Origin: Solirubrobacterales bacterium
GTDB taxonomy: Bacteria > Actinomycetota > Thermoleophilia > Solirubrobacterales > 70-9
NCBI GenBank assembly: GCA_023958085.1
Contig: JAMLGI010000001.1
Coordinates: forward strand, 186,001-250,000
Reading direction: 5' to 3'
DNA: 64,000 bases
Position numbers and translations under genes: made by a program. Below the pieces are notes generated by a model. That model had not been told where the DNA came from and ran no database searches. It was given only the letters and a program-made list of their open reading frames with translations. Positions 50,441 through 58,748 of this stretch are shown piece by piece; position 1 is the first letter of the stretch; each line of letters opens with the position of its first letter.

Positions 50441-50554
50441 GGCCACCAGCCGTCCGCTGGCGGCGTCATCAACCTCACGCGGGACGCTCATGGACCGAGG
50501 TCCTATCGCGTCCCGCGTTCGGCGGATTCCTTGCCAGCGAACGGCTGGACGGCC
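50441..50554. repeat. 114-nt imperfect inverted repeat (cruciform)
   Basis: The left arm starts GGCCACCAGCC and the right arm ends GGCTGGACGGCC, with one gap and two mismatches. ACGCGGGACGC at 50477-50487 pairs perfectly with GCGTCCCGCGT at 50508-50518. The top is a GGACC-GA-GGTCC hairpin at 50492-50503. It starts 6 nt after the acyl-CoA dehydrogenase stop and could end transcription or be a mobile repeat. The gap 50436-50940 contains no gene. Confidence 0.85.
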
Positions 50555-50566
50555 CCGGGAACATCA

Positions 50567-50623
50567 GGCCACCAGCCGTCCGCTGGCGGCGTCATCAACC
50601 TCACGCGGAACGCTCACGGACCG
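50567..50623. repeat. Second copy of the 57-nt arm of the cruciform
   Basis: The 57 nt repeat the left arm at 50441-50497 with two differences (GGGACGC to GGAACGC, and CATGG to CACGG), 126 nt downstream. Together with the inverted arm this makes three copies in alternating orientation. Confidence 0.88.
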
Positions 50624-50632
50624 GTAAAGCCG

Positions 50633-50679
50633 TTCTGGAGCCGATAGTGGAGGCTATGTCGCCTAAATCGGCTCCAGAA
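50633..50679. repeat. 47-nt hairpin repeat, copy 3
   Basis: The ends TTCTGGAGCCG and CGGCTCCAGAA are as in copies 1 and 2 at 38.8 kb. The inner arms are TAGTGGAGGC and GCCTAAAT. It begins 10 nt after the second arm copy of the neighbouring repeat family. Confidence 0.9.
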
Positions 50680-50703
50680 ACATTCCGGGAGGGGTCCTTG
50701 CGG

Positions 50704-50750
50704 AACTGGAGCCGATAGTGGCGGCCATGTTGCCTAAATCGGCTCCAGAA
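50704..50750. repeat. 47-nt hairpin repeat, copy 4
   Basis: The element begins 71 nt after copy 3, the same spacing as between copies 1 and 2. The 5' end reads AACTGGAGCCG, so the outermost two pairs are lost. The rest of the stem is intact. Confidence 0.88.
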
Positions 50751-50940
50751 ACGTTCCGGGGGTTTCGGGTGGGGTTTGCTTCAGGTGCTTCTTGGGTGGT
50801 GGTGGCTTGGTTTGGGGATGACAGCTCGGGTCGCGCGATCTCCGGAACCGGGACCGGAACCGGGACCGGGTTATTGACGACGACGGGTTTTGATGGGATG
50901 CTCGCTTCAACCAGAGGCCAACGAACTTTGTGGGGTATCG

Positions 50941-54325: not shown

Positions 54326-54679
54326 ATGGACCCCGAATCGGAAATTCCCGCCGTTAGCCCGGTCACGGAGGAGGAGTTCGAACGGATGATCTCCGACGCG
54401 ATCGACCGGTTGCCGGTCCAGTTCCGGGAGGCGCTCGAGCGGGTTCCGGTCGTCGTTTCCGATCGCGGCCGGGAGTGGCGGGCCTACGGGCTGTATCAGG
54501 GTGACGGCATCGCCCGGGACAACTACCCGGACCGGATCCTGATCTTCAGGGACACCCTGGTCCGTGACTTCGGGCACGACCGTGAACTGCTGGCGGCCCA
54601 GGTCGAGCGGACTGTCCGCCACGAACTGGGCCACCATCTCGGTTTCGGTGAACGGGGGGTGAGAAACCTCGGCCTCTGA
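54326..54679 (+). CDS. Zincin-like metallopeptidase family protein (DUF1025 type)
   Basis: The ATG at 54326 gives 117 residues. RTVRHELGHHLGFGERGVR holds the HExxH zinc motif and places it in the small PF06262-type family found in many actinobacteria. LPVQFREALERVPVVV is the conserved N-terminal part. A CAGGAT box 6 nt before the ATG suggests leaderless transcription. The annotated function of the family is unproven; proteolysis is assumed from the fold. Confidence 0.88.
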   Translation: MDPESEIPAVSPVTEEEFERMISDAIDRLPVQFREALERVPVVVSDRGREWRAYGLYQGDGIARDNYPDRILIFRDTLVRDFGHDRELLAAQVERTVRHELGHHLGFGERGVRNLGL

Positions 54680-54728
54680 ACCGCTCGCTCGGCGACGGTC
54701 CCTCATCCCGTTCAGACCGAAGGTTCTC

Positions 54729-55109
54729 TCAGGTGATGGAGTCCTCGTCCTCGGCAAAGACGATGATCCCCCAGGTCACCCAGATGCAGAGCGCGAAGAT
54801 CGCCAGAGACCACCAGGGGTAGGCCCCGCCCATTCCGAGCAGGGCTCCGATCGCCCCGAGGGTGCCTCCCGCAATCCCGACCACCCGGCCGAAGGTGTTC
54901 CCGGCATAAAGCGAGAAACCGCCGATCAGCTGGATGACCCCGAGAATGATCGTCACCCAGCCGAGGGTGTTGAGATTGGTCAGGATCAAACGGGTGTCGT
55001 TGACCAGCACGCTGGCGCTGTCAAGCGCGGCGATTCCGTAGATCACGTTCAGCACACCCAGGACGATCAACATGACCGCCGCGAAAGCCGTTCTTCCCGC
55101 TCCTCGCAT
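54729..55109 (-). CDS. DUF7144-type small membrane protein
   Basis: The 126-residue protein has four hydrophobic helices: AFAAVMLIVLGVLNVIYGIA, LGWVTIILGVIQLIGGFSL, VVGIAGGTLGAIGALLGMGG and WWSLAIFALCIWVTWGIIVF. Helix 1, the VNDTRLILTNL loop and GRVVGIAGG match the DUF7144 family of actinobacteria. AAGGAG lies 9 nt before the ATG. Its presumed promoter has a TAACTT -10 at 55169-55164 and the 19-nt palindrome 21 nt further upstream. Function is unknown; stress response is inferred from neighbours. Confidence 0.85.
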   Translation of the reverse strand: MRGAGRTAFAAVMLIVLGVLNVIYGIAALDSASVLVNDTRLILTNLNTLGWVTIILGVIQLIGGFSLYAGNTFGRVVGIAGGTLGAIGALLGMGGAYPWWSLAIFALCIWVTWGIIVFAEDEDSIT

Positions 55110-55163
55110 CTTGATAGCTCCTTCTCTGGCCGCCCAGGCGACCTTGGTGGTCGTTCCGGGTTG

Positions 55164-55169
55164 AAGTTA
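55164..55169 (-). promoter_or_regulatory. -10 box (TAACTT) of the DUF7144 gene
   Basis: TAACTT on the minus strand lies exactly 21 nt from the proximal edge of the palindrome at 55191-55209. The predicted leader is about 48 nt. Confidence 0.5.
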
Positions 55170-55190
55170 GAACGATCACTCGATGCTGCT

Positions 55191-55209
55191 TTCACCCCGA
55201 TCGGGTGAA
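55191..55209. promoter_or_regulatory. 19-nt palindromic operator, copy 1
   Basis: TTCACCCCGATCGGGTGAA has 7-nt perfect arms (TTCACCC/GGGTGAA) with five bases between. It lies between the divergent DUF7144 and LAL-regulator genes. An identical 19-mer occurs at 57449-57467. Its centre falls near -42 of the predicted DUF7144 start site. Confidence 0.75.
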
Positions 55210-55219
55210 CCGCGTCGGT

Positions 55220-55225
55220 TATCGT
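55220..55225 (+). promoter_or_regulatory. Candidate -10 box (TATCGT) of the LAL regulator gene
   Basis: TATCGT lies 10 nt after the palindrome at 55191-55209, so a -35 element with 17-nt spacing would fall inside the palindrome. Binding there would block, not help, this promoter. Confidence 0.35.
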
Positions 55226-55279
55226 TTTTCGGATGCATCGCGGAGGGGCACGAAAACGGGATCGGCCAGGCTGGGGGCC

Positions 55280-57445
55280 ATGACCAGTGTGAGGACACAG
55301 GCTCAGGCTGCTCCGGGGACCGTTTCCCGATCCCGTCTGATCGACGGGCTGGTCGGGGCCAGACACGCCCGGCTTGTGCTGCTCGAGGCTCCGGCGGGAT
55401 ACTCGAAAACCACCACTCTCCGCCTGTGGGATGCAGCCGACCCGCGGACCTTCGTCTGGATCAGGGGAAGTCGAAGACTGAACGATCCGACCCGGTTGAT
55501 CAAGACGATCGTTGCGGTCACCGCGCCGATCGGGATTGACCCCGAGGTGCTTGATGCCCTCGCGGCCCCGAGTCCGGATCTACCCTTCGTGCTCGGGCTG
55601 TTGGGGCAGGCGATCAGCGAACTCGCACCCTTTGTGCTGGTCATCGACGACGCTCACCTGATCGAGGACGAAGAGTCGTGGACGGTGATCCGGGCGGTGG
55701 CAGGGGAACTCCCCCGGGAAGCTCAGCTGGCGATCGGGTCACGAAATCGCCCGCCGCTGGCGATCGGGCCACTCCGGGCCCGCCGCGAGCTTCATGAGCT
55801 GGGGATGGCCGAACTGACCATGACCCGGCGTGAAGGTCGTGACCTGCTGACGGGGATGGGTCTCGATCTCGGAGACCGAGCCGATCTGGTCCACGCAAGG
55901 GCGGAGGGGTGGCCGGCGGCCATGTATCTCGCCGGGCTGGCAATCAGGCAGGATCCGGAGGCAGCGCCTGAGGATGCCGAGTTCGCCGGCAGCGACCGGA
56001 TCCTCGTTGAGTACTTCCGGGACGAGTTCATCCGCGAGCTCCCGGAGGAGGACATCCGGTTTCTCTGCCAAACCTCGATCCTCGATGAGTTGACCGGCCC
56101 CGTCTGCGACGCGGTCACCGGCCGCGATGATTCGGCGGTCCGCCTGGAGCGGCTCGCCCATGAGAACTCCCTGGTGGTCCCGCTTGACCGTCACGGATCA
56201 CGATTCAGGTACCACCATCTCTTTGCCGACATGCTCCGACTCGAGCTGACCCACCGGGAGCCCGAAGCGGAAGCCGGGGCCCACCACCGCGCAGCCGCCT
56301 GGCTGGCCGCCAACGGCGACATCCCGGGTGCCACCGACCACGCCATCGCATCCGGCAACCTGGAACTCGCCGGTGCGCTGATCTGGCTCGATATCGCCGA
56401 CATCCTCGGTGGGGGCAGGGTCGCCATGCTGGACCGGTGGCTGTCTGCGATCGGGGACGATGCGGTCACCAGGGTGCCGGCGCTGATCCTCGCCCGTGCC
56501 CATCGGGAGATGGCGATGGGGCGTGGTGACGAGTCTCACCACTGGCTTGCGGTTGCCGAACGGGAGATTCCCGAAGGTCACCCCAGTTTTGGCGATGTGC
56601 TGATGGTTCGGGTGACGATGGGACCCGACGGTTCCCACCAGATGGTCAAGGATGCACGTCGGGCAGCCGGACTCTTCGACCGGACGAACCCGTGGCTGGT
56701 GCCGCTCGGTCTCTACGAGGGAATCGGCCTCTTTCTCGAGGGGGAAGCGGAAGCCGAGGAACTGCTGCGGACGGCCGCGAGAGAGGCAGCCTCGGTGTCA
56801 CCGATAATCCAGAATCTGGCGCTTGCGCATCTGGCCCTGCTTGAGCTTGAACAGGGCCGGGTTGAGGAGGCGTTCCGGCATATCGCCCGGGCCCGGGACC
56901 AGGTTGAACGCTGCGGGCTTGGCTCCTACGGGGCGATGTCGCTGGTCTTCGCGGTGCTGGCCGACGTGCTTGCCCGACAGGGCCGCCAGGCCGAGTCGTC
57001 CGAGGCCCTGTCCCGCTGCCTGCGGATGAGCGAAGGAATCGAAGACTTCATCGCCTGGTACGAGGCTGAACTGATCCTCGCCTGTGGCCGGGCGATGATC
57101 GGCATCGGGCGTTTCGAGACAGTCGCGGGCATGGCGGACCAGGTCGACCGGCTCGCTGCCCGGATCGCTTCCCCTCCCCGCCTTGCCGGGTGGCTGGAAG
57201 AGCTTCGTCTGGCAGAAGGCCGGGTGGGCCCCGCCGGCCTCGAACTGACTCCGGCGGAGCTCAGAACCCTCTGCCTGCTGCCCACCCACCACTCCTTCCG
57301 GGAGATCGGCGAACAGCTCTGCCTGTCACCGAATACGGTCAAGACCCAGGCGAAATCGCTCTACCGGAAGCTCGGTGTGAACTCCAGGACCGAAGCGGTC
57401 ATGGAAGGTCGTAGGCTCGGCATCCTGGGCCGTCCTCCCGACTGA
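55280..57445 (+). CDS. LAL-type LuxR transcription regulator (MalT-like)
   Basis: The ATG at 55280 gives 721 residues; a longer frame from 55205 runs into the operator and is rejected. The N-terminal STAND ATPase has LEAPAGYSKTTTLRLW (P-loop variant with GYSKTT) and FVLVIDDAHLIED (Walker B). A TPR-like helical region follows from about residue 360 to 640 (ALIWLDIADILGGG, LALAHLALLELEQGRVEEAF). The C-terminal LuxR helix-turn-helix contains FREIGEQLCLSPNTVKTQAK. MalT-type proteins activate genes after binding an inducer and ATP. Identical palindromes before two adjacent transcripts are its likely targets. Confidence 0.9.
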   Translation: MTSVRTQAQAAPGTVSRSRLIDGLVGARHARLVLLEAPAGYSKTTTLRLWDAADPRTFVWIRGSRRLNDPTRLIKTIVAVTAPIGIDPEVLDALAAPSPDLPFVLGLLGQAISELAPFVLVIDDAHLIEDEESWTVIRAVAGELPREAQLAIGSRNRPPLAIGPLRARRELHELGMAELTMTRREGRDLLTGMGLDLGDRADLVHARAEGWPAAMYLAGLAIRQDPEAAPEDAEFAGSDRILVEYFRDEFIRELPEEDIRFLCQTSILDELTGPVCDAVTGRDDSAVRLERLAHENSLVVPLDRHGSRFRYHHLFADMLRLELTHREPEAEAGAHHRAAAWLAANGDIPGATDHAIASGNLELAGALIWLDIADILGGGRVAMLDRWLSAIGDDAVTRVPALILARAHREMAMGRGDESHHWLAVAEREIPEGHPSFGDVLMVRVTMGPDGSHQMVKDARRAAGLFDRTNPWLVPLGLYEGIGLFLEGEAEAEELLRTAAREAASVSPIIQNLALAHLALLELEQGRVEEAFRHIARARDQVERCGLGSYGAMSLVFAVLADVLARQGRQAESSEALSRCLRMSEGIEDFIAWYEAELILACGRAMIGIGRFETVAGMADQVDRLAARIASPPRLAGWLEELRLAEGRVGPAGLELTPAELRTLCLLPTHHSFREIGEQLCLSPNTVKTQAKSLYRKLGVNSRTEAVMEGRRLGILGRPPD

Positions 57446-57448
57446 CGG

Positions 57449-57467
57449 TTCACCCCGATCGGGTGAA
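57449..57467. promoter_or_regulatory. 19-nt palindromic operator, copy 2
   Basis: The 19 bases TTCACCCCGATCGGGTGAA are identical to those at 55191-55209. The site starts 3 nt after the regulator stop. The -10 TAGATT lies 21 nt downstream, so the centre is near -42, as for class II activators. Confidence 0.75.
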
Positions 57468-57488
57468 ATCGGACCTGCCGCACAGGGC

Positions 57489-57494
57489 TAGATT
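57489..57494 (+). promoter_or_regulatory. -10 box (TAGATT) of the DUF6325 gene
   Basis: TAGATT sits 38 nt before the GTG at 57533 and 21 nt after the operator, the same spacing as at the DUF7144 promoter. No -35 hexamer is visible. Confidence 0.5.
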
Positions 57495-57532
57495 GCGCTC
57501 GTGCAAGGTGAACTTCTCCGGGAAGGAACGTC

Positions 57533-57967
57533 GTGACCGAAGAGATCGAAGAGATGGGCCCGATCGACTGGCTGATGGTGGAGTGGGACGAGAAAGAACC
57601 AACCGGCGAGGCGATCCCGTACCTGATCGACCTGGTCGACAGCGGACTGATCCGGATTCTCGATTTCGCCTTCATCATCAAGCGGGACGACGGTTCGATC
57701 GGGCAACTCGAGATCACCGATCTGGGCGGGGATTCAGAGTCGTTCGAGGTGCTCGAGGGGGCGTCGTCGGGCATTCTCGACGAGAGCGACTTCGATGACG
57801 CCGGTGAGGTGCTGGAAACCGGAAAGGCCGCTGCGCTGCTGGTGTACGAGAACCGGTGGGCCGGTCCCTTCGCCGCGGCCGTACGTCGCTCCGGGGGGCA
57901 ACTGGTGGCGAGCGGCCGGATCCCGATTCAGGCCCTGCTGGCCAGCCTCGAAGCCACCGAGAAATGA
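57533..57967 (+). CDS. DUF6325-type protein, unknown function
   Basis: The GTG start gives 144 residues. The order GPIDWLMVEW, IPYLIDLVDSGLIRILDFAFI and then GAAALL-like LETGKAAALLVYENRWAGPF matches the DUF6325 family. That family is related to the older DUF1269-like membrane-stress proteins, and this member is soluble (no helix long enough to span). The protein is acidic in the first half. GGGAAGGAAC precedes the start. It follows a palindrome-linked promoter and is followed by the SHOCT gene after 28 nt, so both should be controlled by the LAL regulator. Confidence 0.82.
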   Translation: MTEEIEEMGPIDWLMVEWDEKEPTGEAIPYLIDLVDSGLIRILDFAFIIKRDDGSIGQLEITDLGGDSESFEVLEGASSGILDESDFDDAGEVLETGKAAALLVYENRWAGPFAAAVRRSGGQLVASGRIPIQALLASLEATEK

Positions 57968-57995
57968 AGCGGGAAATGAGACCAGGAGGAATGAC

Positions 57996-58274
57996 ATGCC
58001 AGGACTGATCGGAGGTATCGCCCGGACTGCTGTGGTGGCCGGGACCGCAACGGCGGTGAGCAATCGCGTCTCCCGCAGACAGGCCTCACGCTGGGCCGAA
58101 CAGGACGGACCGCAGTACGCAAACCCACGGGCGGAGATGGCGATGCAGGAGGAACCGGCTCCCCCGCCCGCCGATCCGGTGGCGCAGCTCAGGGAGCTTG
58201 GTGAACTTCACCAGAGCGGGATCCTGACTGACGAGGAGTTCGCCGCACAGAAGGCGAAGATCCTCGGCGACTAG
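57996..58274 (+). CDS. SHOCT-domain small protein
   Basis: The ATG at 57996, with CCAGGAGGA before it, gives 92 residues. Residues 1-30 form a hydrophobic/alanine-rich start with the phrase GGIARTAVVAGTATAVSNRV. A proline-rich linker (EEPAPPPADP) follows. The C-terminal SHOCT domain is LRELGELHQSGILTDEEFAAQKAKIL. SHOCT domains are short oligomerisation modules found at the ends of membrane proteins. It shares the DUF6325 transcript. Confidence 0.85.
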   Translation: MPGLIGGIARTAVVAGTATAVSNRVSRRQASRWAEQDGPQYANPRAEMAMQEEPAPPPADPVAQLRELGELHQSGILTDEEFAAQKAKILGD

Positions 58275-58277
58275 CTG

Positions 58278-58283
58278 TAGGCT
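58278..58283 (+). promoter_or_regulatory. Leaderless -10 box (TAGGCT)
   Basis: TAGGCT is followed after 6 nt by the cyclophilin ATG at 58290. The same hexamer precedes the GT2 gene at 14100 by 7 nt. Confidence 0.45.
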
Positions 58284-58289
58284 CGACCC

Positions 58290-58748
58290 ATGTCGAAAGC
58301 AACGCTCAACACGACCGCCGGGCAGATCACGATCGAGTTCTTCGATGAGGACGCGCCGAAAACGGTGGAGAATTTCCGCAAGCTGGCCGCCGACGGCTTC
58401 TATGACGGGCTCGGTTTCCACCGGGTGATCAAGGACTTCATGATCCAGGGCGGCTGCCCCGAGGGTACCGGCACCGGCGGTCCCGGCTACACCTTCGAGG
58501 ACGAGTTCAACGACCACAAGGTGGTCCGTGGTGCCCTGGCGATGGCCAACGCCGGCCCGAACACCAACGGCTCCCAGTTCTTCATCGTCACGATCCCGGC
58601 GGCCGACTGGCTCGACGGCAAGCACACCGTTTTCGGTGAGGTCGTGGAAGGAATGGATGCGGTTGACGCGATCGAGGGAACCGACACCGACGGTCGGGAC
58701 ATGCCGACCGAACCGCAGGTGATCATGGGAATCGAACTGAGCGACTGA
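58290..58748 (+). CDS. ppiB: Cyclophilin-type peptidyl-prolyl cis-trans isomerase
   Basis: The 152-residue protein speeds proline isomerisation during folding. [16 protein letters not shown] contains the catalytic arginine in [35 protein letters not shown] and [14 protein letters not shown] are the other cyclophilin A signatures. No signal peptide is present, so it is cytosolic. It starts 15 nt after the SHOCT gene but has its own leaderless -10 box. Confidence 0.94.

What the first reader, a model, noticed from the sequence alone, without database searches (positions are those of the whole stretch)
54729..58274. Identical palindromes at equal spacing before two transcripts next to a LAL regulator
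The exact 19-mer TTCACCCCGATCGGGTGAA occurs only at 55191-55209 and 57449-57467. In both directions that matter, the distance from the palindrome edge to a -10 box is exactly 21 nt (TAACTT for the DUF7144 gene, TAGATT for the DUF6325-SHOCT operon). The centre is then at about -42, the class II activator position, and no -35 hexamer is seen at either promoter. At the regulator's own TATCGT box the same site would cover the -35 region and so repress it. The regulator (MalT-like) lies between the two sites. I propose an activator box for a local regulon with negative self-control.
Basis: partly seen in the sequence, partly recalled or inferred. Interest (0 to 1): 0.78.

Follow-up and report, generated by a model that had tools for sequence, protein, structure and literature searches.

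The report
MalT-type activator box, two promoters
Two identical 19-base mirror-image DNA sites beside a MalT-like regulator gene very probably let that regulator switch on two neighbouring sets of unstudied membrane-related genes; the same site at the same distance recurs across related actinobacteria, and a closely similar system is supported by mutants in Actinoplanes.

Summary
In detail: the 19-mer is present exactly twice in the window and in the whole genome, 21 nt from a TAnnnT -10 box at both outward promoters, with no -35 hexamer. Comparative evidence supports most of the interpretation. Orthologous LAL loci in Solirubrobacterales carry the degenerate site TCAYCC-N5-GGRTGA, and in a histogram over all gaps a TAnnnT box follows at 20-22 nt for 41 of 46 palindromes and rarely elsewhere. 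LAL-linked DUF7144/DUF6325 genes have site plus spacing in 24 of 28 cases, unlinked copies in 6 of 85. The half-sites do not covary, so this is not an RNA hairpin. The architecture matches the motif of the LAL activator 'MalT' of Actinoplanes SE50/110 (TCATCC-N5-GGATGA, 3' end 34.4 nt from mapped starts; deletion and overexpression data). I conclude that it is a local, two-promoter regulon of a MalT-like LAL activator: a new member of a known kind. Activation is well supported by inference. Negative self-control is plausible but weaker: the site overlaps the -35 region of the LAL promoter, but one ortholog that lacks the DUF7144 neighbour also lacks the site. Signal and gene functions are unknown.

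The parts
55191..55209 (.). Palindromic operator 1 (TTCACCC-N5-GGGTGAA) between the divergent DUF7144 and LAL genes
   Evidence: orthologous sites
55164..55169 (-). Predicted -10 box TAACTT of the DUF7144 promoter, 21 nt from operator 1
   Evidence: spacing peak
54729..55109 (-). DUF7144 gene (126 aa), target 1
   Evidence: Pfam PF23636, 78 bits
55220..55225 (+). Predicted -10 box TATCGT of the LAL gene, 10 nt from operator 1 on the other side
   Evidence: genus orthologs have CGTATNCT at the same place
55233..55283 (+). 16-codon upstream ORF starting where a leaderless transcript would begin; its stop overlaps the LAL start codon (ATGA)
   Evidence: read from sequence; inference
55280..57445 (+). 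LAL (MalT-like STAND ATPase with LuxR-type HTH) regulator, 721 aa
   Evidence: Pfam GerE; NCBIfam MalT model 216 bits, under its cut-off of 537; PDB 8bob MalT E=1e-58 over the ATPase part
57449..57467 (.). Palindromic operator 2, identical 19-mer, 3 nt after the LAL stop codon
   Evidence: orthologous sites
57489..57494 (+). Predicted -10 box TAGATT of the DUF6325-SHOCT operon, 21 nt from operator 2
57533..57967 (+). DUF6325 gene (144 aa), target 2
   Evidence: Pfam PF19850, 44.6 bits
57996..58274 (+). SHOCT-domain gene (92 aa), second gene of target 2 operon
   Evidence: Pfam PF09851

Best explanation
The two palindromes are binding sites for the MalT-like LAL regulator encoded between them. 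The regulator most likely binds each inverted repeat TCAYCC-N5-GGRTGA as a dimer or higher oligomer, with the promoter-proximal half ending about 34 nt before the transcription start. It activates two outward promoters that have a TAnnnT -10 box but no -35 element: DUF7144 to the left and DUF6325-SHOCT to the right. Shown here: the sites, the fixed 20-22 nt spacing, its conservation, and its association with a linked LAL gene. Inferred: that this LAL is the binder, that binding activates, and that the signal is an unknown small molecule sensed by the ATPase/TPR part. A further inference of lower confidence (about 0.45): occupation of operator 1 covers the -35 region of the LAL promoter and represses the regulator gene.
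For: Orthologous LAL loci keep the sites, with the -10 box at 20-21 nt in the genus and 20-22 nt more widely. In a histogram over gaps 2-48, 41 of 46 palindromes have TAnnnT at 20-22 nt; every other gap scores 0-2. 79 LAL loci from a named collection gave 59 sites against 0 in both controls. Order-wide exact pattern: 57 hits against 1 control hit in 232 genomes. LAL-linked DUF7144/DUF6325 have the site in 24 of 28 cases, unlinked in 6 of 85, Fisher p 4e-15, and five scrambled palindromes gave 0. Y and R positions of the half-sites do not covary (C-G 9, T-G 8, C-A 8, T-A 4), as expected for protein-DNA contacts rather than RNA. Experimental precedent: Actinoplanes MalT. The same pattern run on Actinoplanes-genus genomes returned amino-acid-permease-like and DUF1269-like genes (by eye) with 0 control hits.
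Against: There are no binding, footprint or transcript-start data for this organism. The Fisher test treats related genomes as independent. Sixty of 134 palindromes (one mismatch allowed) in the fetched loci have no TAnnnT at 20-22 nt on either side, so part of that set is noise or other usage. Two LAL-linked DUF7144 genes (G077:C70, G095) and two LAL-linked DUF6325 genes (G019, G023) fail the strict test. The LAL relative found in one Actinoplanes genome (L183, 30% identity) showed no sites, and the similarity to ACSP50_3915 itself was not tested.
Confidence: 0.85

Rival explanations
1. Another LuxR-type regulator in the genome (for example a NarL/FixJ response regulator), not the adjacent LAL, binds the palindromes; the LAL gene is only a neighbour or a target.
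For: Many LuxR-type HTH proteins exist in these genomes (weak matches limited to the HTH end of the LAL), and LuxR-type HTHs often bind inverted repeats (general knowledge). Six unlinked DUF genes have the site.
Against: The site tracks LAL linkage. The MalT-type LAL of Actinoplanes has the same motif and spacing with deletion and overexpression support.
Confidence: 0.1
2. The palindromes are RNA elements: a terminator or stem-loop after the LAL gene and in the 5' region of DUF7144.
For: Operator 2 lies 3 nt after the LAL stop codon and can form a 7-bp stem.
Against: No T-run follows; folding is little better than shuffles (z -0.89 and -1.35); half-sites do not covary; sites lie upstream of the predicted starts at a fixed distance from a -10 box.
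Confidence: 0.02
3. The palindromes are repressor operators: LAL or another protein represses DUF7144 and DUF6325 from these sites.
For: Sequence alone cannot give the sign of regulation.
Against: There is no recognisable -35 element to block; the centre near -42/-43 with fixed spacing is the class II activator geometry, and Actinoplanes MalT activates from this position.
Confidence: 0.08
4. A variant of the best explanation: the LAL gene is not repressed from operator 1; the site serves DUF7144 only and the overlap with the LAL promoter is incidental or even activating.
For: Ortholog L015 lacks DUF7144 at this spot and lacks the palindrome but keeps the LAL -10 box. In Actinoplanes malT is itself raised on maltose.
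Against: In six genus loci (L013, L014, L016-L019) the palindrome edge lies about 10-14 nt from the LAL -10 box, where a bound protein would cover the -35 region.
Confidence: 0.5

Closest known systems
MalT (ACSP50_3915) regulon of Actinoplanes sp. SE50/110 (PMC7567727)
   Same: LuxR-family (MalT-like) regulator; inverted repeat TCATCC-N5-GGATGA; 3' end 34.4 +/- 1.0 nt from start sites, here about 34-35 nt predicted; targets near the regulator gene; targets often of unknown function or membrane-related.
   Different: There about 40 genes in a 51-gene region respond to maltose, with 17 start sites bearing the motif; here two sites and three targets. The half-sites here are looser (TCAYCC/GGRTGA). 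Signal unknown. Start sites not mapped here. Sequence of ACSP50_3915 not compared directly.
MalT of Escherichia coli and Klebsiella (maltose regulon)
   Same: MalT-like ATPase part (NCBIfam 216 bits; PDB 8bob E=1e-58) and LuxR-type HTH; half-site GGRTGA-N-G resembles the GGA(T/G)GA box bordered by G residues as cited in PMC7567727.
   Different: NCBIfam MalT cut-off (537 bits) not reached; inverted repeat with 5-nt spacer here; no maltose genes among the targets.

Membership tests
MalT-like LAL (STAND ATPase) LuxR-family regulators | N-terminal MalT-like NTPase part plus C-terminal LuxR/GerE HTH in a protein of about 700-900 aa | tested here: met
MalT equivalog (maltose activator) | Score over the curated NCBIfam NF003420 cut-off | tested here: not met
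   216 bits against 537
Actinoplanes-type MalT regulon | Inverted repeat TCATCC-N5-GGATGA or near variant upstream of targets | tested here: met
   both sites, with C/G in place of T/A at the variable position
Actinoplanes-type MalT regulon | 3' end of the site about 34 nt from the transcription start | tested here: inconclusive
   distance to the -10 box conserved at 20-22 nt; start sites themselves not mapped
Actinoplanes-type MalT regulon | Regulator activates the linked targets | not testable with these tools
   needs mutants or reporters
Actinoplanes-type MalT regulon | Induction by maltose | not testable with these tools
   signal unknown

The most novel reading that the evidence does not exclude
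One MalT-type LAL code (TCAYCC-N5-GGRTGA, then 20-22 nt, then TAnnnT, no -35) is shared across Actinomycetota from Thermoleophilia to Micromonosporaceae and recurrently controls the same kinds of small unstudied proteins (DUF7144, DUF6325, DUF1269, SHOCT/PLDc_N), so that regulons of many uncharacterised LALs can be read from sequence, including palindromes that fire in both directions.
Probability: 0.55. Interest if true: 0.55.

Novelty: new member of a known kind. Interest (0 to 1): 0.42.

Why it matters
LAL regulators are common in actinobacteria and most have no known site or target (general knowledge). A fixed site-to-promoter rule makes their targets predictable from sequence and puts several families without known function (DUF7144, DUF6325, DUF1269, SHOCT proteins) under one kind of regulator. 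No paper in the library searched names DUF7144 or DUF6325.

Tried and rejected
The exact 14-base pattern across the order gave hits in only 3 of 201 genomes, which alone would have looked like a refutation; the degenerate form resolved it. One exact copy of the palindrome in G199 (L011) lies near a DUF2252-like gene (my reading of the ORF) and was not pursued. An RNA-hairpin or terminator reading was tested and disfavoured. The pattern with a fully perfect core gave 1 hit in 10 other actinobacterial genomes, so it is too strict for distant lineages. One paper search failed on syntax. No structure prediction was run, since it would not decide between the explanations.

Full report
OBSERVATION. 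The 19-mer TTCACCCCGATCGGGTGAA is at 55191-55209 and 57449-57467 and nowhere else exactly in the 2.44-Mb genome. I read eight of the fifteen near matches with 1-2 mismatches: most appear to lie in coding sequence and none is followed by a promoter-like arrangement (by inspection). On both outward sides the gap from the palindrome to a TAnnnT hexamer is 21 nt (TAACTT, minus strand 55169-55164; TAGATT, 57489-57494), and the regulator's TATCGT box is 10 nt away on the remaining side. No sigma-70-like -35/-10 pair was found in 54600-58400.

GENES. Left: DUF7144 (54729-55109, minus). Middle: a 721-aa LAL protein (55280-57445) with a GerE HTH, a 216-bit match to the NCBIfam MalT model that stays under its 537-bit cut-off, and a profile match to solved MalT (8bob, E=1e-58). 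Right: DUF6325 (57533-57967) and a SHOCT-domain protein (57996-58274). The closest named relatives of the LAL are MAGs of Solirubrobacterales, so the genome most likely belongs to that order.

CONSERVATION. Six loci in the same genus with 56-58% identical LAL (L014-L019) keep a degenerate form, TCAYCC-N5-GGRTGA, before DUF6325 and, except L015, before DUF7144, with the -10 box 20-21 nt away. More distant family members keep it too, often as ATCACCC-N5-GGGTGATgcg. Scanning all loci then held gave 63 hits (up to 2 mismatches, gaps 19-23 nt) in 378 kb, against 1.8 in mononucleotide shuffles and 0 in reversed sequence; some loci overlap, so the 63 are not all independent. For the spacing itself I used loci not selected by the spacing and counted TAnnnT at every gap from 2 to 48: 9, 29 and 3 at 20, 21 and 22 nt for 46 palindromes, and 0-2 at every other gap. 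In 79 LAL loci from genome contigs there were 59 sites (one mismatch allowed), with 0 in shuffles and 0 reversed; several of these loci are the same genomes as above. The exact-core pattern across 232 genomes of the order gave 57 hits against 1 control hit.

LINK TO THE REGULATOR. For every DUF7144 (75) and DUF6325 (38) gene found in 50 genomes of the family I fetched flanks and asked whether a LAL gene is in the fetched stretch and whether site plus spacing lies within about 300 nt upstream. LAL-linked: 24 of 28 with the site. Unlinked: 6 of 85. Fisher p 4e-15; five scrambled palindromes gave 0. The genomes are related, so the p-value overstates independence, but the contrast is large. Some unlinked cases sit near contig ends, so linkage may be under-counted.

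MECHANISM. The variable Y and R positions of the two halves do not covary (C-G 9, T-G 8, C-A 8, T-A 4), which argues for protein-DNA contacts and against an RNA stem. There is no excess of TTGACA-like hexamers over shuffles. The promoter-proximal half is extended, with G at the second position after GGRTGA in 86% of sites, though not at the two sites of this window. Taking the start site 6-7 nt after the -10 box, the 3' end of the core lies about 34-35 nt upstream and the centre near -42/-43. This is the arrangement reported for the activator MalT of Actinoplanes SE50/110: TCATCC-N5-GGATGA, 34.4 +/- 1.0 nt from mapped starts, with lower target transcription in the deletion strain and higher in the overexpressor (PMC7567727). 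Running the exact Actinoplanes motif with spacing on 61 genomes of the genus of Actinoplanes sp. KI2 gave 11 hits and 0 control hits. By eye, downstream proteins include amino-acid-permease-like and DUF1269-like genes (no family scan of these). The paper lists amino acid permeases in its regulon, so this works as a soft positive control; that the permeases are the same genes was not tested.

SELF-CONTROL. In genus orthologs the LAL gene has a CGTATNCT box followed by about 6-8 nt and an ATG or GTG, which suggests leaderless transcripts, and the palindrome edge is about 10-14 nt upstream of that box, covering the -35 region. Repression by bound LAL is therefore plausible. However, L015, which has another gene in place of DUF7144, lacks the palindrome and keeps the LAL box, so there the site goes with DUF7144 rather than with the regulator. 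I give self-repression about 0.45. In the window the ATG at the expected start (55233) opens a 16-codon frame whose stop overlaps the LAL start codon (55280), so LAL translation there may be coupled; this is inference.

WIDER TARGETS. Proteins downstream of sites in other LAL loci include, by Pfam scan, DUF1269, DUF6325, PLDc_N/SHOCT, a sulfatase and a DUF1254/DUF1214 protein. Further ones (MFS-like, SulP-like, NDH-2-like, formylglycine-enzyme-like) are my reading of sequences, not scanned. Three palindromes have a -10 box at the right distance on both sides, which suggests bidirectional use.

CAVEATS. 60 of 134 distinct palindromes (one mismatch allowed) in the fetched loci have no TAnnnT at 20-22 nt on either side; some may be chance matches. 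No binding or expression data exist for this organism. The LAL was not compared directly with ACSP50_3915.

VERDICT. A real, conserved, local two-promoter regulon of a MalT-like LAL activator; a new member of a known kind.

Noticed in passing
window 55233-55283: A 16-codon frame begins where the leaderless LAL start lies in orthologs and ends in an ATGA overlap with the LAL start codon; in orthologs such as L014 the leaderless start is in frame with LAL. Possible frameshift or translational coupling.
   Followed up: partly
window 50441-50760: Two pairs of near-identical direct repeats (57 nt at 96%, 55 nt at 93%); the second carries a CTGGAGCCGAT...ATCGGCTCCAG inverted repeat.
   Followed up: no
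L207 9206, L212 2582, L276 3525: Single palindromes with a TAnnnT box at 20-22 nt on both sides, suggesting one site driving divergent promoters.
   Followed up: partly
L155, L157, L184, L146: Sites also precede a sulfatase (L155) and a DUF1254/DUF1214 protein (L157) by Pfam scan, and, by eye only, a second sulfatase (L184) and a formylglycine-generating-enzyme-like protein (L146), in other LAL loci.
   Followed up: partly
L011 1501-1519: Exact copy of the 19-mer (other orientation) in G199, apparently just upstream of a DUF2252-like gene, with a second one-mismatch site about 40 nt away that has a TAnnnT box at 20 nt.
   Followed up: no
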